A stretch of 50,811 bases of DNA, from contig JAUPKQ010000038.1 in the NCBI GenBank assembly GCA_030837345.1, forward strand, positions 1 to 50,811, given 5' to 3'. Below, piece by piece: positions 15,072 to 27,651 of the stretch. The DNA is from Actinomycetota bacterium. Lineage in GTDB: Bacteria > Actinomycetota > Actinomycetes > Actinomycetales > Kineosporiaceae. The position numbers and the translations under genes are program-made. Below the pieces are notes generated by a model that saw only the letters and a list, made by a program, of their open reading frames with translations, was not told the origin of the DNA and searched no databases. Position 1 is the stretch's first letter. Every line of letters starts with the position of its first letter.

Positions 15072-15461
15072 ATGAGTCATCGCGCCGTCGACCTCGCGGA
15101 GAGGTTGAGCCGGGTCAACGAACACTGGTCGCCCGCGGTCGTCGCTCGTATGAACGACTACGAGGTGAAGGTCGTCAAGCTCGCCGGAGAGTTCGCGTGG
15201 CACGCCCACGACGACACCGACGAACTGTTCCTGGTGCTCTCCGGGCGCCTGACCATTCGTCTGCGGGACGGTGAGGTGCATCTGGAGGCAGGCCACCTCT
15301 TCGTCGTCCCCCGGGGGGTCGAGCACTGCCCGGTCGCGGACGGCGAGGTCCACGCCGTCCTGATCGAGCCGACAGGCGTGGTGGGCACGGGCGAGGTCAC
15401 CGGCGAGGTCACCGGCGGCGGGAACGCCTCGACGCCGGTGACGTCTCCAGATGCTCGATGA
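15072..15461 (+). CDS. Single-domain cupin protein
   Basis: A 129-residue protein with one cupin barrel: motif 1 WHAHDDTDELFLVLSGRL supplies two His and one acidic metal ligand, and motif 2 LEAGHLFVVPRGVEHCPVA supplies the third His. Such proteins range from isomerases to storage or sensor proteins; the function cannot be called. The C-terminal 22 residues are a low-complexity GTGEVTGEVTGG tail that overlaps the convergent regulator gene by 53 bp. GAGGCT lies 6 nt before the ATG and no ribosome-binding site is seen, so it may be leaderless. Confidence 0.88.
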   Translation: MSHRAVDLAERLSRVNEHWSPAVVARMNDYEVKVVKLAGEFAWHAHDDTDELFLVLSGRLTIRLRDGEVHLEAGHLFVVPRGVEHCPVADGEVHAVLIEPTGVVGTGEVTGEVTGGGNASTPVTSPDAR

Positions 15462-15849
15462 ACGCGGTGAGGGCGCGAAGACTCGCCGGGGTCAGCTGCG
15501 CGGCCCGGACGGCGATGTCCCGGACCTCCCGGTCCCGCATGACCTGGATCAGTGCCAGATGCGCGTCGATCCGTTCGACCTCCTCGTTCTCTCCGAGGAA
15601 GTAGCCGACGTCGACACGGAAGTACCGGGCCAGGCCCTGCAGCACGGCCCCGGACGGGTTGTCCCTCTGGCCGGTGAGCAGCTGGGAGAGGTAACTCGCC
15701 GACAGGGGGACCCCCGCCTCGGTCACCCCCTTGGCGACGTCGCGGAGACTGCACTTCTTCCCGTCGGGACGGCGATGGAGATCGAAGAGCCGGTCGAGCT
15801 TCTCGGCCAGGCTGTCGGTGCTCGCTGACCGGCGCCGGTCGTCGTTCAT
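15409..15849 (-). CDS. XRE-family transcriptional regulator (EspR-like architecture)
   Basis: A 146-residue regulator. Residues 8-75 form an HTH: SLAEKLDRLFDLHRRPDGKK, SLRDVAKGV, then LSASYLSQLLTGQRDNPSGAVLQGLARYF and VDVGYFLGE, the pattern of the EspR-like XRE group whose C-terminal helix (RALTAFIEHLE) dimerises. EspR in mycobacteria controls the ESX-1 secretion system, which makes it notable that this gene borders a secretion-like locus. ATG 15849 has AAGGGAGG 7-8 nt upstream; an earlier GTG at 15882 is possible. It could bind the inverted repeat at 15876-15915 or the paired sites in the locus; this is inference. Confidence 0.85.
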   Translation of the reverse strand: MNDDRRRSASTDSLAEKLDRLFDLHRRPDGKKCSLRDVAKGVTEAGVPLSASYLSQLLTGQRDNPSGAVLQGLARYFRVDVGYFLGENEEVERIDAHLALIQVMRDREVRDIAVRAAQLTPASLRALTAFIEHLETSPASRRSRRR

Positions 15850-15875
15850 CCCGTACCCTCCCTTCGATTCATGCT

Positions 15876-15915
15876 CTGACACATTTCACCATCGCGGGGC
15901 ACCACTGTCTGTCAG
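15876..15915. promoter_or_regulatory. Inverted repeat upstream of the XRE regulator gene
   Basis: CTGACA (15876-15881) and TGTCAG (15910-15915) form a dyad 28 nt apart immediately upstream of the regulator start. It may be an autoregulatory operator. Confidence 0.35.
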
Positions 15916-15990: not shown

Positions 15991-16554
15991 CTACGGTCCC
16001 TGAACTGCGGTGATCTCGTCGACGCGCCAGAACCCACCGGTCAGGGCCAGGCGAAGGAACAGGGTGCGCCGCTGGACCGTCGTCCATCCGCCGTCGCCAC
16101 GGAGGGTGATGATGGCGTGCACCTGGCGATGGACGGCGGACGTCGTGTCGGGCGGGTGCTCGTCGCCGCCCAGCCGGACGTCGACGTCGGCCCGGGCATG
16201 TCGTCGTGTCCACTCGTCCCACTCCGCCCCGGGGGCCGAGTCGCCCGCGAAGGTGGAGGTCTCCCGGCGCAGTCCCGGTGTCAGCCACCCCAGGGCGAGG
16301 CGCCGCACCGTGTCGTTCGGACGGGTGTCGACGCGCGTGTCCCACGACAGGACGGCTCTGACGGTGGTGAGTGCCACGGTGTCGGCCGGTCCCTCGACGG
16401 GGGCTCCCACGGGGACCGGGGCCGTGGAGGGGAGAACGGCGATCGCCGCTTCCTCCGCGCTGTCCGGCGCCGGTGTGCCGCCTCCGCACCCGGCCAGCGT
16501 GACGGCGAGGAGGAGCGCCCCCGCCGGGATCAGGCGTAACGGACGGCGCGCCAC
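15991..16554 (-). CDS. Lipoprotein of VirB8/TcpC size in the T4SS-like locus
   Basis: A 187-residue lipoprotein: the basic start VARRPLRL, hydrophobic core IPAGALLLAVTLAGC with a lipobox (LAGC), then about 160 extracytoplasmic residues. The second half (TTVRAVLSWDTR, WDEWTRRHARADVDVRL, QVHAIITLRGDGGW, RTLFLRLALTGGFWRVDEI) has the helix-then-curved-sheet pattern of NTF2-like domains, as in VirB8/TcpC. That assignment is inferred from pattern only. The GTG at 16554 lies inside the end of the wall-hydrolase gene (25-bp overlap), so the two are one operon. Confidence 0.7.
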   Translation of the reverse strand: MARRPLRLIPAGALLLAVTLAGCGGGTPAPDSAEEAAIAVLPSTAPVPVGAPVEGPADTVALTTVRAVLSWDTRVDTRPNDTVRRLALGWLTPGLRRETSTFAGDSAPGAEWDEWTRRHARADVDVRLGGDEHPPDTTSAVHRQVHAIITLRGDGGWTTVQRRTLFLRLALTGGFWRVDEITAVQGP

Positions 16555-17528
16555 TGCTGACTCCGCCAGTAGGAAGTGGTCAGGTCGGCGGTGCGGACAC
16601 GGGTGCCCGACCGTGGTGCGTGGATCATCGTTCCTCCCCCGAGGTAGATGCCGACATGATGGGCGACCGCCTCTCCGGGGCTGGTGAAGGAGATGACATC
16701 CCCGGGACGCAGCCTGTCGCGGGGTACCGGCGTGCCGGTCCGTGTCTGGGCGTCCGCCGAGTGCGGCAGCTTCACCGAGCCGCCCGACGCGCGGTAGGCC
16801 GCGTAGAGAACGAGGCCGGAGCAGTCGAGGCCGCCTCTGGTCGGTCCCCGGAACGATCCTCCCGACCACACGTACGGAACACCGGTCTGCCCCCTCGCCG
16901 CCTCGACGAACCGGGTCGCGAACCCGCGTGCCACGACCGGGACGTGCTCCACGGCAGCGGTGAGGTCCTCCATCCTTTGGGTGATCTTGTTCACGTAGTC
17001 CCTCGTCTCCTCGAAACGGGGGATCCCCTTCGCCGCGAGCACGGCTCCCGGCCCGGCGTTGTAGGCCGCGAGCATCAGTTCGACGAGATCGCCCGTCACG
17101 GCTCCCCGGGCCTTGGCGGCGGACATCGACGAGGCCAGGTGGCAGTCGTAGGTGGCCTGGGAGAGGATCGCGTCCGCAGGGTCGAACGGGGACGGCGGTC
17201 CGTCGCCGTCGCCGTCGCCGTCGCGCCCCCAGCGACGCCACGTCGCGGGCATGAACTGCGCGAGGCCCTGCGCGCCGGCGCGGGAGACGGCGCGCGGGTT
17301 CCAGCCGGACTCCGCCTCCAGCTGTGCGGCCAGCAGGGCGGGGGTCACGGCCGGGCACAGGGTGCCCGCCGTGTTGACGAGGGCCGCGTAGACCGCGGGG
17401 ACGGTCCCGGGTCGCAGAGGGGGCGCCGTCCGCGCGGGGATCTGCCCGCCCATGGTCACGACGAGCACCACCAGGAGGAGGACGAGTCCCACCGAGAGGG
17501 CGACGAGCCAGCCGATGACGGCTCTCAC
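16530..17528 (-). CDS. Bifunctional wall hydrolase: lytic transglycosylase plus NlpC/P60 endopeptidase (VirB1-like)
   Basis: A 332-residue protein with an N-terminal membrane anchor (residues 4-27), a lytic transglycosylase domain (50-200: catalytic Glu73 in ESGWNP, GAQGLAQFMPATW, AYNAGPGAV) and a C-terminal NlpC/P60 domain (210-330: Cys in DCSGLVLYAAYR, His in HHVGIYLGGGTMIHAP). This two-domain form opens peptidoglycan at Gram-positive conjugation machines (VirB1/TcpG-type). Between the motifs lies GDGDGDGDG, coded by a hexamer repeat near 17206-17226. GTG 17528 has AGGAG 9 nt upstream. It overlaps the lipoprotein gene downstream. An inverted-repeat site lies 77 bp upstream. Confidence 0.92.
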   Translation of the reverse strand: MRAVIGWLVALSVGLVLLLVVLVVTMGGQIPARTAPPLRPGTVPAVYAALVNTAGTLCPAVTPALLAAQLEAESGWNPRAVSRAGAQGLAQFMPATWRRWGRDGDGDGDGPPSPFDPADAILSQATYDCHLASSMSAAKARGAVTGDLVELMLAAYNAGPGAVLAAKGIPRFEETRDYVNKITQRMEDLTAAVEHVPVVARGFATRFVEAARGQTGVPYVWSGGSFRGPTRGGLDCSGLVLYAAYRASGGSVKLPHSADAQTRTGTPVPRDRLRPGDVISFTSPGEAVAHHVGIYLGGGTMIHAPRSGTRVRTADLTTSYWRSQQWRAVRYA

Positions 17529-17604
17529 GACGACGGGCTCCTGCCGGGCGCTGGGATCACCGGTACCTCCCCGGGCGCCGTCGTCGTGCCCGGCCCCACG
17601 AGTT

Positions 17605-17648
17605 GTTCGCTGTAGCGATCAGTGGATGATCTGTGCACTATAGCGAAC
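17605..17648. promoter_or_regulatory. Inverted-repeat site A (GTTYGCT-N30-AGCRAAC)
   Basis: GTTCGCT (17605-17611) and AGCGAAC (17642-17648) form a perfect 7-bp dyad with a 30-nt spacer; four more bases pair imperfectly. It lies upstream of the wall-hydrolase gene. On the minus strand the right arm runs into TATAGT, one base from the -10 consensus. Site B at 19746-19789 has the same spacing. Confidence 0.65.
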
Positions 17649-17697
17649 ATCTGCCGGGCGTCTCGTGACGGACCGGGCCCGAGGGCCCGGACGGTGG

Positions 17698-19662
17698 TCA
17701 CTTCTCGCCGGCCGTCCGGACGGCAGCCAGGTACCACTGCGAGCCGGACGGTGCGATTGTGAGGGCGAGTGGTTTCCTGCCCGGTGTGACCAGGGCGAAC
17801 GGCACCGGGGTGTTCTTTTCGAGAGACAGGACGGAGAACCCGGACGGTCGCTTGGGCACGATGTCGACGATCTCTTGCGGCGCGTTCGCCGGGTCTCGGT
17901 TCATCGCGTAGACATGTCCTTCGACGAGGCTGATCGGCGTGTACTGCGCGAGCAGCGAACTGATTCGCCGGACACCCGGGTCGACCACGACCTGCCCCAC
18001 CGCCGTGATCGATCCGGACACCTGCCGCGTGACTCCCGCCTGGGTGATGTCCGCTCCTGCCGGGACGGCGTCGTTGATGAGGATCTTCGCGGTCTGCGTG
18101 TCGACGAGAGAGATCTTCTGGGGGTCGTTGCCCTTGCGGGCCCAGACCGTGAGCAGGTACCGGCCTGCGATGTCCACCATCCGCGCCGGTGGGCCCAGGG
18201 CCCCGGGCGGCGGCGGTACCGCGTGCGCCTGGAACCCCGTGGCCGTCGCGCGGATCCAGGTCCCGGCGAGGACGGCCACGACGGCGGGACCATCGGCGGC
18301 CAGAGCCCGGGCCTTCGGCGGTATCGGGACCCGGCTCAGGGCGCCCTCGTTGACCAGCCAGACGGCGGCGCCCGCCGTGACGAGCGGCGCGGTGCCGGTC
18401 CAGGTCACCTTCGCCCCGGCGGGGAGGACGATCCTGCGAGGCTCCGGCACCTCGGCCACCTGGCGCCGGGACCGGTCGGGGCCGGACGCCTCCTGGTCCG
18501 GCGCCGGTGAGGCCGGCCAGTAGGCCAGCGCCGAAGCCGAGGCGAGCGCCAGGACCTTGCGGCCGTCGATGTGCGTCAGCCACGGTCCGTCCCATTCCGC
18601 GCCCCACCGTGATCCGCCGCGGTGCGTCACCGTGCCCTTCCCCGGATCGACGTGGATGATCCGTCCCTCGCCGTCGCGGGTCGCGACGACGGTGTCCCGG
18701 ACCGCGACCTTGGTCCACTGCGCGACCTCCGCCGTCCAGGCCGTACGGGTGGAGAACCCCGGCAGCGTCCCGGGGAGGGATGACAGTGGCCCCCGTTCGG
18801 GGGCGCCGGCCGCCTCGTCGCCGGCCGCCTCTCCCTCCGGCGGGCGCATCGTGGCTCCGGCCTGGGATCGCCAGGGCTGGGACATCACCGTCGCGGCGAT
18901 GAGGATCAGCAGAACCACCCCGAGTCCGATGACCGCCGCCACGGGACGACGAACGCGCCGCGGGACGAGGTCGTCGGCCGGGAGGCTCCTTCGAGCCATC
19001 GTCGTGACCGGTGGGGGTGTCATGACCGGTGGGGGTGTCGTGACCGGCGGGGGCGTCGGAGCCGGTGGTGGTCTCATGAACGGTGGGGGTGTGGCCTTGG
19101 CCGCGGGGGTTCCGGCGGCCGTTCCGCTCGGTTCCGTTCCCCGGGCGTCGGTGAGGCCGGGTCCTTCGCGTCGGGCGAGGTAGGGATGGGGCGGCGGGAC
19201 GGCCTTCCGCGGGACCGGCTTGTCCTTCTCGGTGGAGAGATGAATCACTCGGAGAGCGGGATCCGGAGCCTTCGCCTGCGGGAGGGGTGGTGCCACCGGG
19301 GCCGGAGCCGGAGGTGGAGCCGCAGCCGGAGGTGGAGCCGGGGTCTGCGGTGGTGACCAGGGAACATTCCCGGCGTCCACCAGATCGAACGTTCCGTCCG
19401 GATGGGCGATGAGGTGACGTGTCCCCGAAGGGTCTGTCGCGGTGACGCCGACGTCCCGGCCCAGGGTCGCGGCCATGCGCGCCGCCTCTCCCATCAGTTG
19501 CCGTCGTACGTCGTCGCTCTTGGCCGGAGCGAGGGTCCTGCCGTTGAGCGTCGCCCGGCCGTCGAGCGTGAGGACCAGGGAGACGACAGGCCAAGTGGCT
19601 GATGCCTCGTGGTGAGCGTGTGGATTCCCCGCCGGAGGGACGGGCCCGGGCGTCCGGCTCAA
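17698..19662 (-). CDS. Proline-rich single-pass membrane protein with a large extracytoplasmic domain (T4SS-like locus)
   Basis: A 654-residue protein. Residues 1-80 form a small cytosolic domain; 85-215 are very Pro-rich, including hexapeptide repeats PPPVTT/PPPVMT coded by 18-bp tandem repeats; one membrane helix is at about 236-258; the remaining 390 residues are extracytoplasmic, with repeated beta-strand segments (WTKVAVRDTVVATRDGEG, RYLLTVWARKG) suggesting a beta-propeller-like or sandwich fold. Cytosolic domain, Pro-rich spacer, one helix and outer domain recalls VirB10-type scaffolds, but no sequence motif proves this. The start is TTG with GAGAGGGG upstream. Site B lies between it and the divergent operon. 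Confidence 0.7.
   Translation of the reverse strand: MSRTPGPVPPAGNPHAHHEASATWPVVSLVLTLDGRATLNGRTLAPAKSDDVRRQLMGEAARMAATLGRDVGVTATDPSGTRHLIAHPDGTFDLVDAGNVPWSPPQTPAPPPAAAPPPAPAPVAPPLPQAKAPDPALRVIHLSTEKDKPVPRKAVPPPHPYLARREGPGLTDARGTEPSGTAAGTPAAKATPPPFMRPPPAPTPPPVTTPPPVMTPPPVTTMARRSLPADDLVPRRVRRPVAAVIGLGVVLLILIAATVMSQPWRSQAGATMRPPEGEAAGDEAAGAPERGPLSSLPGTLPGFSTRTAWTAEVAQWTKVAVRDTVVATRDGEGRIIHVDPGKGTVTHRGGSRWGAEWDGPWLTHIDGRKVLALASASALAYWPASPAPDQEASGPDRSRRQVAEVPEPRRIVLPAGAKVTWTGTAPLVTAGAAVWLVNEGALSRVPIPPKARALAADGPAVVAVLAGTWIRATATGFQAHAVPPPPGALGPPARMVDIAGRYLLTVWARKGNDPQKISLVDTQTAKILINDAVPAGADITQAGVTRQVSGSITAVGQVVVDPGVRRISSLLAQYTPISLVEGHVYAMNRDPANAPQEIVDIVPKRPSGFSVLSLEKNTPVPFALVTPGRKPLALTIAPSGSQWYLAAVRTAGEK
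19006..19095. repeat. Five 18-bp tandem repeats inside the proline-rich gene
   Basis: Units at 19006, 19024, 19042, 19060 and 19078 share GACCGGTGGGGGTGTC-type sequence. On the coding (minus) strand they encode Pro-Pro-Pro-Val-Thr/Met-Thr hexapeptides. Unit number may vary between strains and would change linker length in frame. Confidence 0.8.
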
Positions 19663-19745
19663 GGTGGCCCCTCTCTTGTTGATCGCCTCGGTGGTACCCC
19701 GTGAGGGAGCCCGTGGGAAGACACGGTGCGGACCTCACCTTGACT

Positions 19746-19789
19746 GTTTGCTGACCTGCACGCTAGCCATAGTGTTCGACATAGCAAAC
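19746..19789. promoter_or_regulatory. Inverted-repeat site B in the divergent T4SS-like promoter region
   Basis: GTTTGCT (19746-19752) and AGCAAAC (19783-19789) form a perfect 7-bp dyad (8 bp with the flanking T/A) with the same 30-nt spacer as site A. It lies between the divergent proline-rich gene and the rightward operon. A promoter-like TTGACT (19740-19745) with TAGCCA (19764-19769) overlaps it on the plus strand, so a bound regulator could block RNA polymerase in both directions. Confidence 0.65.
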
Positions 19790-19797
19790 AAGGGGGC

Positions 19798-20463
19798 ATG
19801 GTGGCAGACGCGGAGGATCCCTGGTTGACCGCGGCACGTACGCTCCGGTCCGAGGAGCCGGAGAAACGCTCGCTCGCCGTCCGCTCCGATCCGGTGCCGG
19901 AGCGGCTGCAGTCGCACGAGGTGGCGCCCGCCGAGGCGCCCGTGCCCGGGCACCGCATCCCGCGGTGGTTCGAGCGGCCTCGTCCGCACCTCGGTGAGGG
20001 CACGGCGAGTGGGGCCGCCCGCTGGTGGTGGCTCGGCGTCCACGGCGGAGCGGGGGTGAGCACGCTCCTCGAACTCGTGCCCGGCGGTGCGGACGCCTTC
20101 CGGTTCTGGCCGTCCCCTTCGGTGCACGGCGGGCCCGACGGCCTGGTCCTGGTCTGCCGGACGCACGCGCACGGTCTGCGCTGCGCCCGCGCGGCGGTGC
20201 ACCAGTGGAACTCGCACGACGTGCCGGATCGCCTCACCCTGCTGGGACTGGTCGCGATCGCCGACGCCCCCGGCAAACTGCCCGTCCCCCAGTCCCAGGC
20301 GTTGCGTCTGCTCGCCGGCGCGGTGGAGAGGCTCTGGACCGTCCCGTTCCTGGAGGACCTGCGGCGGGCGCCCGACATCCACGGCCTCCCGATGCCGCCC
20401 GCCCTGGCGAAGCTCTCCTCCGACCTCGAAGCGCTACGGCCCTTGACCGAGGCGTTGTGGTGA
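19798..20463 (+). CDS. DUF6668-like protein with a degenerate P-loop
   Basis: A 221-residue soluble protein. After an 80-residue variable N-terminus, WWWLGVHGGAGVSTL (residues 76-90) resembles the deviant Walker A of MinD/ParA-type proteins (GGxGKT), but the Lys is replaced by Val, so normal ATP hydrolysis is doubtful. GLVLVCRTHAHGLRCA and LLGLVAIADAPGKLP fit the later strands of a P-loop fold. This resembles the family catalogued as DUF6668, which occurs beside SCO6880-type genes. It is the first gene of the rightward operon; the next gene overlaps its stop as GTGA. ATG 19798 or GTG 19801 may be used (AGGGGG just upstream). Confidence 0.75.
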   Translation: MVADAEDPWLTAARTLRSEEPEKRSLAVRSDPVPERLQSHEVAPAEAPVPGHRIPRWFERPRPHLGEGTASGAARWWWLGVHGGAGVSTLLELVPGGADAFRFWPSPSVHGGPDGLVLVCRTHAHGLRCARAAVHQWNSHDVPDRLTLLGLVAIADAPGKLPVPQSQALRLLAGAVERLWTVPFLEDLRRAPDIHGLPMPPALAKLSSDLEALRPLTEALW

Positions 20464-21617
20464 GCGGCGGCACCTACCTCGCTCGCCGCGTGGTCGCCGG
20501 CCACCGTTGGCGGAAGGCTCGTTCGCTGCGGTCCCGCCTGAGGTCGACCTCGCCGGTCAACCTCGTTCTGACCGGGCGTTTCACCGCTGCCGGGCTCGGT
20601 TCGACCACCGATCTGTACCGGGCCGGGGACGTGTTCGGCAGGTCGTGGGGTTTCCTCCACGTCGCCTCGACCGGGCACGGGTCGATCGTCCTCACCTGTG
20701 AGATCAGCGGCGACGCGCTGGAGGACGCCGAACGCGCCGGGACCTGGGTCGCCCGGCTCGGCCTGTGGCTGGCGATGCTCTCCCACGAGCCTGATCTCGT
20801 GGCGTGCGTCGTCAGCATCGATCGTGGTTCCGGCACGAGCGACGTGGAGGTCCGTCTGCAGCTGACCTACCAGGTCGCGGGTCCGCACGACCTGCGTGAC
20901 CCGGCGGCCCAGGCGACGGAGCTGGCGGCCCGCATCCCGGAGCTCACGAGGTCGCTCGCCGACGTCGGCCGCGTGACGGCGGCGACCAGCGAGAGCGTCC
21001 GGGCGACGGTCCTCGCCGCCTACTCGCCGTCCTCGGGGAGCGGGAACGGGACACCGGCACCGGCCAGGGTCGGGCGGGGGCGCCGGGCGGTGCAGGTGCT
21101 CGACCTCAAGGAGAGCTGGAACCACGTGGGCCACGGCTCGGAACGGGCGGCCGTCTCGACCACCTGGTCCCTCAGCCGCCTCGCCTCCAGCGTCGTCCTG
21201 TCCAGTGCTCTGCCACCGCTGATGACCATCCCGCCCGATCTCGCGCACATCCGTGTCGGCCTGATGGCCCAGCCGTCGAGCGGCGCACCCTCCACGTACG
21301 ACCCCCGCGAGTGGACGGGGCTCAGCGCCGGGGCCCTCGGGCTGCGGACTCCTAAGGGGGCGGAGGAGGACCTCCCGACACCGGCCTTCTCGATGCTGGT
21401 GACGGCGACGGTGGCACGCCAGGAGCTCCTGGCGGACGCCGCCCTCGCGGTGCGTGGCTGCCTCCCACCGGACGTGCAGCCGTGGCTCCGGCCCCTGTAC
21501 GGCGACCAGGCGGCCGGTTTCGCCGCGGGCCTGCCTCTCGGGCTCGCCCCCGACGAGCACACCCTTCCGCCCCGGACCGTCGCGACGGCGCCCGAACCCC
21601 GGCCCGGCCGGACATGA
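20460..21617 (+). CDS. TM-less paralogue of the SCO6880-family protein
   Basis: A 385-residue soluble protein with no membrane helix. It aligns along most of its length with the SCO6880 protein encoded at 23274: LGLWLAMLSHEPDLVACVV against DTWLAVLGREHGIDQVAVV, FSMLVTATV against FSMFVTVTV, and LRPLYGDQAAGFAAGLPLG against LRPVAGAQAAAFAAGLGVG. It lacks the N-terminal two-helix anchor. SCO6880 proteins resemble the N-terminal domain of VirB4/TrbE. A soluble duplicate in the same operon suggests a heteromeric VirB4-like complex, which is inference. GTG 20460 overlaps the upstream stop codon. Confidence 0.78.
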   Translation: MSGGTYLARRVVAGHRWRKARSLRSRLRSTSPVNLVLTGRFTAAGLGSTTDLYRAGDVFGRSWGFLHVASTGHGSIVLTCEISGDALEDAERAGTWVARLGLWLAMLSHEPDLVACVVSIDRGSGTSDVEVRLQLTYQVAGPHDLRDPAAQATELAARIPELTRSLADVGRVTAATSESVRATVLAAYSPSSGSGNGTPAPARVGRGRRAVQVLDLKESWNHVGHGSERAAVSTTWSLSRLASSVVLSSALPPLMTIPPDLAHIRVGLMAQPSSGAPSTYDPREWTGLSAGALGLRTPKGAEEDLPTPAFSMLVTATVARQELLADAALAVRGCLPPDVQPWLRPLYGDQAAGFAAGLPLGLAPDEHTLPPRTVATAPEPRPGRT

Positions 21618-21671
21618 CTGGTGGAGGCGCGGCCCTGGGCATGGTCCGCGAGTCACGAGAAGGAGAGACCG

Positions 21672-21980
21672 ATGACACCGTTCCTCACATCCGTGGTGGC
21701 CGTCGGCGTCCGCGCCGCCACGCCGTCCCCGACCGGAGGCAGGGTCGACGTCAGACCCACGGCTCCGGCCTTCGCGGGCCACTTCAACGAGCTGGTGGGG
21801 TGGGTGCTGTGGGGATGCACCCTCGTCTGCGTCATGGGGATCGCGATCATCGGCGCCATGCTCGCCCTGTCCCTTCGCCGGGGGGAGACCGGCGAGTACG
21901 TCGCGAGGCTCCTGGCGGCCGCCACGGGTGTGATCATCGTCGGCCTGTCGTCGACGATCGTCAACGCGTTGATGAGGTGA
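21672..21980 (+). CDS. Small two-helix membrane protein, VirB2/TrbC-like (possible pilin or channel subunit)
   Basis: A 102-residue protein: residues 1-17 are a weak hydrophobic leader that could be cleaved near ATPS, then a short hydrophilic stretch and two membrane helices (43-68 and 79-100) joined by LRRGETGEYVARL. Size, topology and a place before the VirB6-like gene match VirB2/TrbC pilins and the small membrane proteins of Gram-positive T4SS loci. There is no sequence-level proof. ATG 21672 has AAGGAGAG at good spacing. Confidence 0.7.
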   Translation: MTPFLTSVVAVGVRAATPSPTGGRVDVRPTAPAFAGHFNELVGWVLWGCTLVCVMGIAIIGAMLALSLRRGETGEYVARLLAAATGVIIVGLSSTIVNALMR

Positions 21981-22071
21981 GCGCTCCCTGCGCGGTCACG
22001 CCGGGCACGCGGCACGCGCCGGGTGGGACGGCGGGATCACCTCAGGGATCCGACAGCGGGAGGACGGCACC

Positions 22072-23277
22072 ATGACGATCACCATGACGATCACCATGAT
22101 GGTCGGAATGACGGGGGACCTTCCCGCGCTTCTCCTCCCCGCCGCGCCCTCCCCACCACCGGGCGGAGGCACCGTCCCGGGCGACCAGTTCGCGACGCTG
22201 GTCCGCCAGCTGTCGACAGGCCTCATCAACCTCCTGGAGATGATGACCGGCAGCTGGGTGCTGGTGGGGGCTCCGAGGACGGGTGTCCATGACTCGATCC
22301 TCACGAAGACGCAGGAACTGACGCTCCCCCTGACGGTGGTGGTGGCGACGATCGGCGTCATGGTGGCCGGTACCCGGATGGTCGTCTCCAGCACGCGTCT
22401 CCAGGAGACCGGCCGGGACCTCCTTCGCGGTCTGCTCCTGCTGGCCGTCTTCGGGACCGGATCCGTCTGGATCGTGACCAAGGTGCGGGAGGCCTTCGAC
22501 GCGGCCGTCGCCTCCGTCGTCCTCGACGATCTCTCGGCACCCACCACGAAGAGCCTCACCCAAGTGATCACGGTCGCGGCCGCCGACAAACCCGGAGTGA
22601 TGTTCGTCCTGTCCGTCGTCGGCATGGTCTCCGTGCTCATGCAGTTCGTCATGCTGCTGCTGCGCGAGCCCGCGCTCGCCGTCCTGACCGGGCTGCTGCC
22701 GGTCGCCGCCGGCGCGTCGATGAGCGGGCTCGGCCGGATCTGGTTGATGAGGATCATCAGCTGGATCGCGGCTCTGGTCATCTACAAGTTCGTGGCCGCC
22801 GTGATCTATGCGACGGCCTTCGGCTCGCTCCGGACCGCCAAGGACCTGACGGACATCATCACGTGCATCACCTTGATCATCATCGCGGTCGCGGCGTTGC
22901 CGATCCTCGTGCGCCTCCTGACCCCGACCATCATGGCGATGCAGCCAGGGGGCGGGTCGCTCGCGGCCGCGGGGACGATCGGCTCCGGTGCCGTGCTGCT
23001 CAACGGGCAGAACCGCAAGGGTGGTTTCGGCGACGACCGTCCCTCGGACGCCGGGGCGCCCTCCCGGCCCGGCCTCGCCCTGGGGGCGTTGCCGGCGCAG
23101 ACCGGCACCGTCCCGAGAGCCCTGCCCGCCGGGGCGCGACAGGCGACCGGACCGGACGACGGCTTGGACCTCGATCCTCCCCTCCCCGTCATCCGGAGAG
23201 CAGGCCCCGACGCGGGGGTCGTCCGGCGACCCGGCACCCTCGGCCGGACCGGCGACGAAGCGGAGCCCCTCCGGTGA
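22072..23277 (+). CDS. SCO6881-family polytopic membrane protein (VirB6/TrbL-like)
   Basis: A 401-residue protein with about six membrane helices between residues 85 and 300 (LPLTVVVATIGVMVAGTRMV, LLRGLLLLAVFGTGSVWIV, VMFVLSVVGMVSVLMQFVMLLL, PALAVLTGLLPVAAGASM, IISWIAALVIYKFVAAVIYA, IITCITLIIIAVAALPILV) and a hydrophilic 100-residue tail. EPALAVLTGLLPVAAGASMS and WIAALVIYKFVAAVIYA are typical of the SCO6881/TrbL-like family that forms the inner-membrane channel of T4SSs. ATG 22072 follows GGGAGGACGGCACC. It is followed by a GTGA overlap with the SCO6880 gene, so channel and anchor are made together. Confidence 0.88.
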   Translation: MTITMTITMMVGMTGDLPALLLPAAPSPPPGGGTVPGDQFATLVRQLSTGLINLLEMMTGSWVLVGAPRTGVHDSILTKTQELTLPLTVVVATIGVMVAGTRMVVSSTRLQETGRDLLRGLLLLAVFGTGSVWIVTKVREAFDAAVASVVLDDLSAPTTKSLTQVITVAAADKPGVMFVLSVVGMVSVLMQFVMLLLREPALAVLTGLLPVAAGASMSGLGRIWLMRIISWIAALVIYKFVAAVIYATAFGSLRTAKDLTDIITCITLIIIAVAALPILVRLLTPTIMAMQPGGGSLAAAGTIGSGAVLLNGQNRKGGFGDDRPSDAGAPSRPGLALGALPAQTGTVPRALPAGARQATGPDDGLDLDPPLPVIRRAGPDAGVVRRPGTLGRTGDEAEPLR

Positions 23278-24821
23278 GCGGGTCCGTGCCGACCTCGACG
23301 CGGCCTCCGATCCGGACGTACGGCGGGTGGCGCCGGCCGATGTCCCCGGGGCTGGGCGCCCTCGCCCTCGTGCCGACCTTGGGGATCTTCGTCGGCCTGA
23401 TCGTGACGCTCCTCGTGGCCACGACCACCTCCCTGACGGCGGGGGCGATCTGCGGAGCGGTGTTCCTGCTGCTGACGGCCCCCGCCGTCGTCCAGATCGG
23501 TGACCGGCCGGCCTGGCGTCACCTCACGCTGCGCTGGGCCTGGCGGCGGGCCCGGAGGACGGGTGCCGCGGTCTACCGGTCCGGTCCCCTCGGCCATCTG
23601 CCCGAGGAGGACTGCCGCCTGCCCGGGCTGCTCGCGCGGTCCCGGGTGTGGTCCGCGCGCGACTCGTACTCCCGGCCGTTCGCCCTGATCCAGCATCCGT
23701 TCTCGAACCAGTGGACCGTGGTCCTGGCCGTCAACCCGAACGGTGGCGCGCTCATCTCGCGGGAGGACCGGGACGGCCGTGTCGCGCACTGGGACACCTG
23801 GCTAGCCGTCCTCGGCAGGGAGCACGGGATCGACCAGGTGGCCGTGGTCCTCGACCAGGTGCCGGATCCCGGGCGGATCCTGCGGGCCTGTGTCGACGAG
23901 TCGATCGCGCCGGACGCACCGGAGTTCGCCGCGCGGATGATGCGGGACGCCGCCCGCGTCTACCCGACCGGCAGCGCGGAGCTCACCGCGTTCGTCGCCA
24001 TCACCTTCAGCGGGCGCAAGCTCGCCGTCCCGACCGGTGACCGTGTCGCCGAGGAAGCCGCCGAACTGGCGGCCCGCGAGATCGGTACCCGGCTCCCCGG
24101 GCTCTCCCGGTCGCTCGTGGCGACCGGATCGGGGGAGGGCCGGCCGGTCACGGCCGACGGCCTCGCCACGATGGTGAGGGGATGGTACGACCCCGCGGTC
24201 CAGGTCCCGCTCGCCGAGGCGGCCGCCCGGGGCTGGGAACCGGGCCTCCGCTGGGAGGACGCCGGTCCTGTCGCCGCGCAGGAGACCTGGGACACCTACC
24301 GGCACGACTCGGGGCTCTCCCGGGTCCTGGAGATGACGAGTTCTCCCCGGGGAACCGTCTACGACTCGGTGCTGTCGCCGATGATCGCACCGATGCCCGG
24401 ACGCAAACGGGTCACCCTGCTGTACCGGCCGCTCCCCGCCGCCGATGCCCCCGCGGCCCTCGATCTCCAGGTCCGGGCGGCGCTCAACCGGGCGGGGCGG
24501 CGCAAAGGTCTCGTGCACGCCCACGACAGCGCGGAGGTCCGTGCCGCGGTGCAGGCCGCCCAGGAGGAGGCGACAGGTGCCGGCGTCGTCTCGTTCTCGA
24601 TGTTCGTCACCGTCACGGTGGACGGCGACCGGGACGGCGGCCGGCCCGAGGAGGATCTGCGAGCGGCGACCGAGGCGATCGTCCGGGCCGCGCGGTCCGC
24701 CCAGGTCGTGCTGCGTCCGGTCGCGGGAGCGCAGGCCGCGGCCTTCGCCGCGGGACTCGGGGTCGGCATCGTTCCCGTCAACCACTCGCTGCTGCCGTCC
24801 GGCGTCCGGTCCGGCGTCTGA
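23274..24821 (+). CDS. SCO6880-family membrane protein (VirB4 N-domain-like)
   Basis: A 515-residue protein. Residues 12-20 (TYGGWRRPMSPGL) precede two membrane helices (about 22-70: LGALALVPTLGIFVGLIV, AICGAVFLLLTAPAVVQI); then follows a large cytosolic part with LRWAWRRARRTG, WTVVLAVNPNGGALIS, WDTYRHDSGLSRVLEM and LRPVAGAQAAAFAAGLGVG. This is the SCO6880 family found in actinobacterial conjugation-like loci beside an ATPase; it corresponds to the N-terminal half of VirB4, with the motor domain encoded separately downstream. GTG 23274 overlaps the SCO6881 stop. Confidence 0.88.
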   Translation: MSGSVPTSTRPPIRTYGGWRRPMSPGLGALALVPTLGIFVGLIVTLLVATTTSLTAGAICGAVFLLLTAPAVVQIGDRPAWRHLTLRWAWRRARRTGAAVYRSGPLGHLPEEDCRLPGLLARSRVWSARDSYSRPFALIQHPFSNQWTVVLAVNPNGGALISREDRDGRVAHWDTWLAVLGREHGIDQVAVVLDQVPDPGRILRACVDESIAPDAPEFAARMMRDAARVYPTGSAELTAFVAITFSGRKLAVPTGDRVAEEAAELAAREIGTRLPGLSRSLVATGSGEGRPVTADGLATMVRGWYDPAVQVPLAEAAARGWEPGLRWEDAGPVAAQETWDTYRHDSGLSRVLEMTSSPRGTVYDSVLSPMIAPMPGRKRVTLLYRPLPAADAPAALDLQVRAALNRAGRRKGLVHAHDSAEVRAAVQAAQEEATGAGVVSFSMFVTVTVDGDRDGGRPEEDLRAATEAIVRAARSAQVVLRPVAGAQAAAFAAGLGVGIVPVNHSLLPSGVRSGV

Positions 24822-24868
24822 ACCGTGGACCAGTACCAGCAGGAACCGACGGCGGAAGGAATGGGGAC

Positions 24869-26311
24869 ATGAGAAAGAACCCGTCCCGGCGCGCGGGCCG
24901 TCTCGGCCTGCGTGGGGGAGTCGGCCGCGGAGGCGGCGCGACGACGTTCGTGCCCGTCCCCCTGGAGTGGCAGGGCACGACCCGGCAGGTCGCGGGCCTG
25001 TTCCCGTGGGGGGTGCCGGGGCGGCTCCCCGCCATCGGCGTCCCGACCGGCCGTCACCAGCTGGGGGCCGGAGTGGTGTGCTTCGACCCGGCGAGCTGGT
25101 TCCGCGCGGGGCTGATCGCCAACCCGTCGGTCCTCGTCCTCGGCAAACCGGGCCTCGGCAAGTCGACCCTCGTCGACCACTGGGGAATCGGGCTGGCCGC
25201 CATGGGCTACCGCATCCTCGTCCCCGGCGACACCAAGCCCGACCACGTGGAGATGACCCGCGTTCTCGGCGGGGCGGTGCAGCAGGTGCGGCGCTCCGGC
25301 GGCGCCGCCCTCAACCCCTGCGATCCCGGGGGTATGGGGGCCTCGGCCGCCCGCATCGGAGGCCAGGCGGGGGACACCCTCCTGCACGAGGCGATCGGCC
25401 GCGGGACGACCGCCGTCCACTCCCTGGTCCAGCTGATCCGTGACGGTTCTCCGGTGCTGGACCATGAGCGGGCGGCTCTCGCGATGGCTCTGCGCGTCCT
25501 CTACACGTCAGGCCGGCGCGCCCCCTCGTTGCCGGATGTCCTCGACGTCCTGGGGCAGAGGCCGGACGAGATCCGTTCGGTCGTGCTCGCCCGGGGCGGG
25601 GACGACGACTACGACGTCCTGCTCGACCCGTTGCGCCGTTCCCTGCTCGCCCTGCTCGCGGGTCCCTACGGCAACGTCTTCTCGCGCCCGGTCGACCGCA
25701 GCGACATCGACACCCCCGCCCTGGACATCGACACGTCGGCCATCAAGGCCGGGGATCCGGGGTACCTGGCGGCGGTCCTCATCTGTGCCTGGAGCGAGGC
25801 CTACGGGCGGGTGGAGTCCGCTCAGGCCCTCACGGCGGCCGGGCTGGAGCCACGCCGCCAGCACGTGGTGATCCTCGACGAGCTGTGGCGCGTGCTCCGC
25901 GTCGGCCGTGGGACCGGAATGGCGGACCGGGTGAACGAGCTCACCCGCCTCAACCGGACCGAGGGGGTGTGCCAGATCATGGTCACCCACGGAGTCCGGG
26001 ATCTCTCCACCGGGCGCGACCAGCAGGTGGAGGGCATCGAGCACCGTGCGGGGGCGCTCGTGATCGGCGGGATCCCGAAAGGCGAGGTCCGGGCCCTGCA
26101 GGACGTCGTCACGCTCACCGACGCGGAGGCCGGACAGCTCGTCTCGTGGTCGTCCGCGCCGGACCTCGACCCGCGCACCAGGCCTCCGGGCTCGGGGAAG
26201 TTCCTCATCAAGCACTCCCCGACGGAGCCGGGTATCCCCGTCGACGTCATGCTCACGCCGACCGAACTGGCCTGGGGCGGACAGAACTCGAATCGCGCAT
26301 GGGAGGACTGA
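24869..26311 (+). CDS. VirB4/HerA-like ATPase of the T4SS-like locus
   Basis: A 480-residue P-loop ATPase. Walker A GKPGLGKST (about residues 91-99), then ILVPGDTKPDHVEM, and Walker B HVVILDELW (about residue 331) followed by MVTHGVRDL (sensor-like) and LIKHSP. This is the motor half of VirB4-type proteins, lacking the N-terminal domain that the preceding SCO6880 gene provides. It is expected to energise assembly or transport at the cytosolic face. ATG 24869 is preceded by GGAAGGAATGGGGAC. No second motor of VirD4/TcpB type is in the window. Confidence 0.9.
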   Translation: MRKNPSRRAGRLGLRGGVGRGGGATTFVPVPLEWQGTTRQVAGLFPWGVPGRLPAIGVPTGRHQLGAGVVCFDPASWFRAGLIANPSVLVLGKPGLGKSTLVDHWGIGLAAMGYRILVPGDTKPDHVEMTRVLGGAVQQVRRSGGAALNPCDPGGMGASAARIGGQAGDTLLHEAIGRGTTAVHSLVQLIRDGSPVLDHERAALAMALRVLYTSGRRAPSLPDVLDVLGQRPDEIRSVVLARGGDDDYDVLLDPLRRSLLALLAGPYGNVFSRPVDRSDIDTPALDIDTSAIKAGDPGYLAAVLICAWSEAYGRVESAQALTAAGLEPRRQHVVILDELWRVLRVGRGTGMADRVNELTRLNRTEGVCQIMVTHGVRDLSTGRDQQVEGIEHRAGALVIGGIPKGEVRALQDVVTLTDAEAGQLVSWSSAPDLDPRTRPPGSGKFLIKHSPTEPGIPVDVMLTPTELAWGGQNSNRAWED

Positions 26312-26568: not shown

Positions 26569-27651
26569 ATGTTCTCGGGGGGCAAGACGGTGGATTTGGT
26601 TGACGGCCCCGGGTTCGGACCCTGCGGGATGATGTTCGCCTCGATCGAATCGATGCTCTCCTCCCCGTTCTCGCTAGAGTCTTTGGTCTCCGTCGTTGAG
26701 CGTGAGATCGATTTCCCCATCACGGTCGAGGTGCTCCCGCCGGGGCTCGGGCCGGACATATCGGGGTTGAGCGTCGTCGTCGGCGACGAAATCCGGATCT
26801 ACCATCCTTCCGGCCCGGAATGGATGAGGCTCGTCGTCGTGACCCGTCAGCTCGCGCATCTTCTCCTGCACCGTCCGGGCGGATCCGCCGGAGCGGGAGT
26901 GCCGCGCCGGACCGGGGACGACCCGGACGGCGAACTGCTCGGCATCCTGCTCGCCGACCACGCCGAGCAACTGCTGATCGGGCAGGACACGACCCGCACG
27001 GACGACGGTCAGGCGGTCCGGGCGCAGCTCGATCTGATGATGCCTCTCTGGGCGATGCTCGTCGACGGTACGTCCGCGCCCCTGTCGTGGCCCGAGCCCC
27101 TGCGTCTCGGGGGCGTCCGTCCCGGGGCGGGCCGGGGTCGTGGCTGTCCCGGCCGGCCGCGGGCGGCCGCCCGCCCGGCCGCCCCGGAGAACGCCGCTCA
27201 CCCACGGACGAGTGAGGCATGCCTGCGCTGGCGGCGACAGCGTGTCGTCACCGACCTCTACGACATGCGGCGAGGGCTCCGTGGCCTGGTGCCTCCGGAC
27301 CTGCCCGCCCTGGCCCTGGAACAGGTCCGCGGGGCCGGTCTCTTCGGGCCCGTCGCGACAGCCGCCGCCGACCGCGTCTTTCTGGAGGTCGCCCTCGCGG
27401 CCCGGGCCGGGCATGCCGTCACCAGGGAACCGCTGGGGGACGACGCGGGCGTGTGGCTGCCCGGGAGGACGCCGGCGGAGGCCGCCGCCCACGTCGCCGG
27501 GCAGGAGAGACTGGTCGCCCCCGGCGGCGTCCGGACGGTGATCGGCGCTGTCCGCGACCTCCTGACCGGCGCGGTGGCCGATCAGGTCTCGGGCAGCCCG
27601 AGCCAGGCGTGCCATCCTCCGTGGAGGACGAGCCAAGCCATCAGCCCGTAG
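26569..27651 (+). CDS. ImmA/ParH-like regulator component with a DUF6545-like C-terminal region
   Basis: About 360 residues. The N-terminal half (SLESLVSVVEREIDFPITVE, ISGLSVVVGDEIRIYHP, WMRLVVVTRQLAHLLLHRPGG) follows the pattern of actinobacterial ParH-like or regulator-component proteins, an ImmA/IrrE relative; only a HxxxH-like LAHLLLH remains of the metal site (no HExxH). The C-terminal half (RRQRVVTDLYDMRRGLRGL, ARAGHAVTREPLG) resembles the end of MAB_1171c/DUF6545 proteins, which usually are separate. It ends the T4SS-like block and overlaps the convergent GDSL gene by 70 bp. The start is uncertain: ATG 26569, 26629 and 26632 are all possible. Confidence 0.6.
   Translation: MFSGGKTVDLVDGPGFGPCGMMFASIESMLSSPFSLESLVSVVEREIDFPITVEVLPPGLGPDISGLSVVVGDEIRIYHPSGPEWMRLVVVTRQLAHLLLHRPGGSAGAGVPRRTGDDPDGELLGILLADHAEQLLIGQDTTRTDDGQAVRAQLDLMMPLWAMLVDGTSAPLSWPEPLRLGGVRPGAGRGRGCPGRPRAAARPAAPENAAHPRTSEACLRWRRQRVVTDLYDMRRGLRGLVPPDLPALALEQVRGAGLFGPVATAAADRVFLEVALAARAGHAVTREPLGDDAGVWLPGRTPAEAAAHVAGQERLVAPGGVRTVIGAVRDLLTGAVADQVSGSPSQACHPPWRTSQAISP

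What the first reader, a model, noticed from the sequence alone, without database searches (positions are those of the whole stretch)
17605..19789. Two operator-like inverted repeats with identical 44-bp geometry
GTTCGCT-N30-AGCGAAC (17605-17648) and GTTTGCT-N30-AGCAAAC (19746-19789) differ by one transition per arm and keep exactly 30 nt between arms. Both are intergenic: one before the wall-hydrolase gene, the other in the divergent promoter of the two arms, overlapping promoter-like sequence. Identical spacing with unrelated spacer sequence points to a specific protein binding two sites three helical turns apart. I found no third copy when reading the window by eye.
Basis: seen in the sequence. 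Interest (0 to 1): 0.7.

Follow-up and report, generated by a model that had tools for sequence, protein, structure and literature searches.

The report
Paired-palindrome operator beside EspR-like regulator genes
Two matching 46-base DNA sites in the control regions of a bacterial secretion-type gene cluster, plus a third copy near a sister regulator elsewhere in the genome, look like genuine landing pads for a regulator related to the tuberculosis protein EspR; this is a plausible new regulatory circuit of an ordinary kind, not yet proven by experiment.

Summary
The arms are 8 bp (TGTTYGCT ... AGCRAACA; 17604-17649 and 19745-19790), and the spacers are not unrelated. Each site is two tandem 18-bp pseudo-palindromes, TGTTYGCT-N2-AGCRAACA, with consensus outer boxes, degenerate inner boxes and 28 bp between centres (0 of 20,000 spacer shuffles match as well). 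The genome holds one more such site (C11:43868-43914, centres 29 bp apart). It starts 2.8 kb past a second gene of the same regulator type, which is the closest relative of the window's regulator in about 400 order genomes sampled. The XRE protein at 15409-15882 is an EspR homologue (E about 1e-18 to solved EspR). Its recognition helix is nearly that of M. tuberculosis EspR, and all six outer half-sites fit EspR's published consensus TTTGC[TC][GA] with T or C at one position; both of IR2 fit exactly. Best reading: a locus-specific operator bound by two EspR-like dimers, controlling an SCO6880/VirB4-type gene cluster and its wall hydrolase. Scans of about 750 class genomes and 85,000 species genomes (the latter GTTC arms only) found no such site near an EspR gene. 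Binder and direction of control are inferred.

The parts
17604..17649 (.). Site IR1: two tandem 18-bp pseudo-palindromes, TGTTCGCT-GT-AGCGATCA / TGTGCACT-AT-AGCGAACA, centres 28 bp apart
17604..17621 (.). IR1 left palindrome (boxes 17604-17611 and 17614-17621)
   Evidence: one mismatch to TGTTYGCTNNAGCRAACA, the best match in the whole genome
17632..17649 (.). IR1 right palindrome (boxes 17632-17639 and 17642-17649); on the minus strand TATAGT (17642-17637) is a -10-like hexamer reading towards the hydrolase gene
   Evidence: two mismatches; the hexamer is read from the sequence, not confirmed by the promoter scan
19745..19790 (.). Site IR2: TGTTTGCT-GA-CCTGCACG / TGTTCGAC-AT-AGCAAACA, centres 28 bp apart, in the divergent intergenic region
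19773..19790 (.). IR2 right palindrome; its outer box ends 7 bp before the ATG at 19798
   Evidence: two mismatches to the 18-mer; sequence
15409..15882 (-). EspR-like XRE regulator (start GTG 15882 or ATG 15849); proposed binder
   Evidence: phmmer to EspR 3r1f/3qf3/4ndw/3qwg, E 4.5e-18 to 9.5e-18, residues 21-144; alignment
16530..17528 (-). SLT transglycosylase + NlpC/P60 wall hydrolase, first gene downstream of IR1 (start 76 bp away)
   Evidence: Pfam PF00877 4.4e-23, PF01464 2.1e-16
17698..19662 (-). Proline-rich single-span membrane protein, 654 aa; its start is 83 bp from IR2 on the minus side
   Evidence: ORF; no Pfam or NCBIfam match
19798..20463 (+). First gene of the rightward operon, 221 aa, directly downstream of IR2; relatives occur in other loci of this type
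20460..26311 (+). Core of the cluster: SCO6880-family proteins (20460-21617 and 22863-24821) and a VirB4/TraC-like ATPase (ending at 26311)
   Evidence: NF042935 6.3e-28 and 1.1e-139; TIGR02746 2.4e-5, below its cutoff; conserved with EspR-like genes in other genomes
26569..27651 (+). Protein with a DUF6545-like C-terminal part, related to the protein encoded two genes after the second EspR-like gene on contig C11
   Evidence: 33% identity, E 7.5e-8; PF20182 6.3e-4, below cutoff

Best explanation
IR1 and IR2 are operators of the adjacent EspR-like XRE protein. Each operator offers two 18-bp pseudo-palindromes (TGTTYGCT-N2-AGCRAACA) whose centres lie 28 bp apart. One dimer would sit on each palindrome with its two recognition helices one turn apart, and the two dimers would bind cooperatively, which would explain strong outer boxes, tolerated weak inner boxes and fixed spacing. 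IR2 lies across the divergent control region of the 17698-19662 gene and the SCO6880/VirB4 operon; IR1 lies 76 bp upstream of the wall hydrolase gene. Binding there most likely represses all three transcription units together, and the two sites, 2.1 kb apart, could also be bridged. Shown: the sequence architecture, its rarity, the third copy near the paralogue, and the EspR homology. Inferred: that EspR binds, cooperativity, repression and bridging.
For: Architecture: inner boxes fit the 8-2-8 palindrome in 32 of 48 positions, 0 of 20,000 shuffles over 24 geometries; predicting each site's inner boxes from the other two sites gives p 0.001, <5e-5, <5e-5. Rarity: three sites in the genome; no other copy of the TGTTYGCTR box has a good partner. 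Link to EspR: the third site starts 2.8 kb from the end of the EspR-like gene at C11:40635-41045, which also matches only EspR in PDB (E 1e-15) and is the best relative of the window protein in 396 order genomes. Half-site: all six outer boxes read TT[CT]GCT[AG], and both boxes of IR2 match EspR's TTTGC[TC][GA] exactly (consensus from PMC3315491). Recognition region SASYLSQL..G.R.NPSG against SAPYLSQL..G.R.NPSG in M. tuberculosis EspR. Possible autoregulatory sites of the same shape upstream of EspR-like genes in two distant genomes, TGTTCGCCTGGGTGAACA and TGTTTACTGATGTGAACA.
Against: No binding or expression data. No such site at either regulator's own promoter. Relatives with EspR-like + SCO6880/VirB4 loci lack the site. 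The third site lies between two convergent genes, not obviously in a promoter. EspR is described as inserting only one helix of a dimer per site and acting as a nucleoid protein with hundreds of sites, unlike a classical dimer on an 18-bp palindrome with three sites. The relaxed 18-mer seen upstream of EspR in two genomes was derived after seeing them, and 8 of 9 exact matches in 72 EspR-bearing genomes are not upstream of any listed EspR gene.
Confidence: 0.55

Rival explanations
1. The sites are operators, but of a regulator other than the EspR-like protein, encoded elsewhere in the genome.
For: Motif co-location does not prove binding; neither EspR-like gene carries the site at its own promoter; many regulators bind tandem palindromes.
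Against: Among genes examined with Pfam, EspR-like proteins are the only HTH genes common to the two loci; the half-site agrees with EspR's consensus including the final R. Not every gene of both contigs was scanned.
Confidence: 0.25
2. The repeats act as RNA hairpins (5'-UTR, attenuator or 3'-end element) rather than as protein sites on DNA.
For: IR1 in both strands and the C11 site fold much better than shuffles (z -4.2 to -4.8); the C11 site lies after the end of an operon; IR1 could lie inside a transcript of 17698-19662 into the hydrolase gene.
Against: An RNA hairpin needs pairing, not the same sequence in both arms of three loci. In IR1 the boxes keep the consensus where opposite inner positions do not pair. 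IR2 folds weakly, z -2.1 and -0.05. No U-tract or terminator match and no relevant Rfam hit.
Confidence: 0.08
3. A recombination, mobile-element or dispersed-repeat sequence.
For: A dispersed palindromic repeat with GTTCGCTGGTC...GACCAGCGAAC exists in Cellulomonas fimi and G147.
Against: Only three copies here, no shared flanks beyond the box, all within 3 kb or so of two EspR-like loci; boxes and inner register differ from the Cellulomonas repeat.
Confidence: 0.05
4. Chance inverted repeats in a GC-rich genome.
For: Equal-spaced 8-bp inverted repeat pairs are common in this composition (0.78 expected per window, 6 seen).
Against: Box is AT-rich and rare; about 7e-5 inward pairs expected per spacing; none in the genome by the backward control; inner boxes conserved across three sites.
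Confidence: 0.03

Closest known systems
EspR of Mycobacterium tuberculosis and its sites (PMC3315491)
   Same: Homologous regulator over residues 21-144; near-identical recognition region; half-site TTYGCTR against TTTGC[TC][GA]; genes of a secretion system and wall functions nearby; a secretion-type locus as apparent target
   Different: EspR sites are single motifs, hundreds per genome, often far from promoters or inside genes, with an outward pair CAGCAAA-N16-TTTGCTC at its own promoter. Here: inward 18-bp palindromes in pairs at fixed spacing, three per genome, none at the regulator's own promoter
Tandem-palindrome operators of XRE/HTH_3 repressors (phage-type repressors; from general knowledge)
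   Same: Two dimers on neighbouring palindromes, boxes about one turn apart, divergent promoter
   Different: Regulator has EspR-type architecture and is not phage-borne as far as seen; binding untested
SCO6880-family / VirB4-like loci of actinobacteria (NCBIfam NF042935)
   Same: Gene content of the window cluster; EspR-like gene close by in several genomes
   Different: No operator of this kind found in those relatives

Membership tests
EspR family (regulator) | Sequence similarity to EspR over both the HTH and the C-terminal dimerisation region | tested here: met
   E 4.5e-18, residues 21-144 to EspR 4-126; paralogue E 1.1e-15
EspR family (regulator) | EspR-type dimer structure | not tested
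   No structure was predicted; only sequence alignment
EspR family (regulator) | Nucleoid-associated behaviour, hundreds of sites, secretion | not testable with these tools
   Needs ChIP-seq and fractionation; only three strong sites found, weak sites cannot be excluded
EspR binding site | Core TTTGC[TC][GA] | tested here: met
   Exact in both boxes of IR2 (19747 +, 19788 -), one transition away in IR1 and the C11 site
EspR binding site | Outward inverted pair CAGCAAA-N16-TTTGCTC as at the espR promoter | tested here: not met
   Pairs here are inward; no outward AGCRAA/TTYGCT pair found in the window region
Tandem-palindrome operator | Two palindromes with fixed register, repeated at several loci | tested here: met
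   Three sites, centres 28/28/29 bp apart
Tandem-palindrome operator | Conservation in relatives that keep the locus | tested here: not met
   Absent in related EspR + SCO6880/VirB4 loci and in 393 other class genomes apart from one coding-gene-junction match judged chance
Tandem-palindrome operator | Protein occupancy and effect on transcription | not testable with these tools
   No binding or expression data

The most novel reading that the evidence does not exclude
EspR-like proteins outside mycobacteria act as classical locus-specific switches: two dimers bind paired 18-bp palindromes to silence a chromosomal secretion-type cluster and its wall hydrolase together, possibly bridging the two sites, and the mycobacterial nucleoid role is a later expansion of that circuit.
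Probability: 0.2. Interest if true: 0.65.

Novelty: new member of a known kind. Interest (0 to 1): 0.42.

Why it matters
It gives an EspR-like regulator outside mycobacteria a concrete, testable operator. If right, it links EspR-type regulators to control of SCO6880/VirB4-type clusters, and the shape of the site (paired inward palindromes) would show how the same recognition helix is used by a local switch as opposed to a nucleoid protein. It also offers an easy entry to the question of when this little-studied cluster is expressed.

Tried and rejected
Conservation in relatives by exact pattern, by weight matrix and by half-site pairs in 54 fetched regions: no clear operator. Pairwise comparison of inverted repeats between same-genus loci: swamped by conserved coding sequence. 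Class-wide pattern scan of 394 genomes: one extra match in G032, at the junction of two housekeeping-type genes, judged chance. Genome-contig scan: 5 stretches; two from one Cellulomonas fimi genome, which by the look of the sequence are a dispersed palindromic repeat, and three from unrelated phyla, about the number expected by chance; no gene search was completed on these loci because the script failed. That scan required GTTC in the first arm, so a GTTT/GTTT site like IR2 would be missed. Order-wide N30 hits: several are coding-like repeats of one family or the G147 repeat; not followed one by one. RNA element: no relevant Rfam match. A relaxed 18-mer in 72 EspR-bearing genomes: 9 hits, only the one already known lies upstream of an EspR gene, so it adds little. 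Third EspR-like gene (C102): no matching site on its contig.

Full report
Observation. The arms extend to 8 bp, TGTTYGCT/AGCRAACA, giving 17604-17649 (IR1) and 19745-19790 (IR2). IR1 lies between the end of the 17698-19662 gene and the start of the hydrolase gene at 17528; IR2 lies between the divergent starts at 19662 and 19798.

Is it more than chance? A blind test gives a caution: in this 71% GC window, pairs of 8-bp inverted repeats with equal spacing and near-equal arms are expected at 0.78 per simulated window, and six are present, five of them GC-rich. What is unusual is the sequence. Both sites sit in the lowest 0.3% of 46-mers by GC, and TGTTYGCTR occurs only four times in the window, all four in these sites. 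In the genome it occurs 35 times, from which about 7e-5 inward pairs are expected at any one spacing. The genome has two at N30 and, when the spacer is allowed to run from 17 to 45, a third at N31 on contig C11 and one unrelated match at N35. The other copies of TGTTYGCTR have no comparable partner nearby.

The spacers are not unrelated. Aligning the six half-sites of the three sites shows a second conserved block, invariant G and C at positions 13 and 16 of the half-site; predicting the block in each site from the other two gives p = 0.001 or less. Read as boxes, each half is a pseudo-palindrome TGTTYGCT-N2-AGCRAACA: the inner boxes match in 32 of 48 positions at this geometry, against none of 20,000 shuffles at any of 24 geometries. 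A search of the genome for the 18-mer with up to three mismatches has IR1's left half as its best hit, and the right halves of IR1, IR2 and the C11 site among its next six. The sites are therefore two tandem palindromes with centres 28, 28 and 29 bp apart, not one long inverted repeat. Within a palindrome the box centres are 10 bp apart, about one turn; the outer arms alone are 37-38 bp apart, about three and a half turns. The geometry was chosen after looking at the sites; the shuffles allow for 24 geometries, not for every possible motif.

Who binds? The XRE gene at 15409-15882 is a homologue of EspR: the only PDB matches are EspR chains, E 4.5e-18 to 9.5e-18. In alignment the recognition region is SASYLSQLLTGQRDNPSG against SAPYLSQLRSGNRTNPSG in EspR, whereas most relatives in other genomes have W or another residue in place of the second S. 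EspR's consensus from ChIP-seq is TTTGC[TC][GA] (PMC3315491); all six outer boxes read TT[CT]GCT[AG] and both boxes of IR2 match exactly. The third site starts 2.8 kb beyond the end of another EspR-like gene (C11:40635-41045), which is the closest relative of the window protein among 396 sampled order genomes and also matches only EspR in PDB. Downstream of that gene lies a DUF6545 protein related to the window's 26569-27651, so the two loci resemble each other beyond the regulator. Two distant EspR-like genes have a palindrome of the same shape about 180 bp before the aligned region, but the relaxed pattern was fitted to them and a scan of 72 EspR-bearing genomes gave 9 exact matches of which only that known one is upstream of EspR; I count this as weak.

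What it controls. The cluster contains two SCO6880-family proteins and a VirB4/TraC-like ATPase, an SLT + NlpC/P60 hydrolase and an unassigned membrane protein. The flanks carry EPSP synthase, IMP dehydrogenase and other chromosomal-type genes. EspR-like genes lie within about 10 kb of SCO6880/VirB4 genes in several other genomes. By position IR2 would occlude the start region of the rightward operon (its last base is 7 bp before the ATG), and IR1 overlaps a -10-like TATAGT on the minus strand; the promoter scan found nothing at its threshold, so repression is an inference. The C11 site lies between convergent genes, where repression of a promoter is not obvious.

Conservation. The same pattern was not found in the related loci. 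In a class sample of 394 genomes only this genome (three sites) and one chance-like match responded. The scan of 85,000 species genomes gave five stretches, none tied to EspR as far as read; two come from a Cellulomonas fimi genome and look like a dispersed repeat. That scan covered only sites with GTTC in the first arm, and the script meant to search those loci for EspR genes failed. The nearest relatives held share only about 35-48% identity in the regulator and cluster proteins, so absence speaks for lineage-specific sites more than against function.

Rivals. An RNA hairpin is possible on folding grounds for IR1 and the C11 site, but not for IR2 on the minus strand, and hairpins do not need the same arm sequence at three loci. 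A different regulator remains possible at about one in four. Chance and mobile repeats are unlikely.

Verdict. A real, locus-restricted operator-like element with a plausible EspR-like binder: a new example of a known kind, interesting as a test case for EspR-type regulation outside mycobacteria.

Noticed in passing
L041:7600-10914 (G000 C11:40599-43913): EspR-like gene followed by a small protein with an HELGHLLCGH metallopeptidase-like motif (no Pfam family at cutoff), a DUF6545 protein and then the third operator-like site in a convergent intergenic region
   Followed up: partly
26569-27651: The window's DUF6545-like protein has QLAHLLLH where the C11 metallopeptidase-like protein has HELGHLLCGH; possibly a fused, inactive version of the same partner
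   Followed up: partly
17604-17649, 19745-19790, L041:10869-10915: Each of the three sites pairs one TGTTYGCTA half with one TGTTYGCTG half; the A half carries a -10-like hexamer (TATAGT, TATGTC, TAGTAT), reading leftward at both window sites
   Followed up: no
L071, L075 and genome G147: Dispersed palindromic repeat with GTTCGCTGGTC...GACCAGCGAAC in Cellulomonas fimi and a related genome (17 pattern hits in G147)
   Followed up: no
L023 (G000 C102), 88 bp before the aligned region of the third EspR-like gene: Perfect 8-2-8 palindrome CATCCACT-GA-AGTGGATG, same shape as the operator palindromes but another sequence
   Followed up: no
L059:9753-9796 (G011, same family): GTTTGCT-N30-AGCAAAC in a same-family genome, without the inner boxes and with no EspR-like gene found in the 20 kb fetched
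   Followed up: partly
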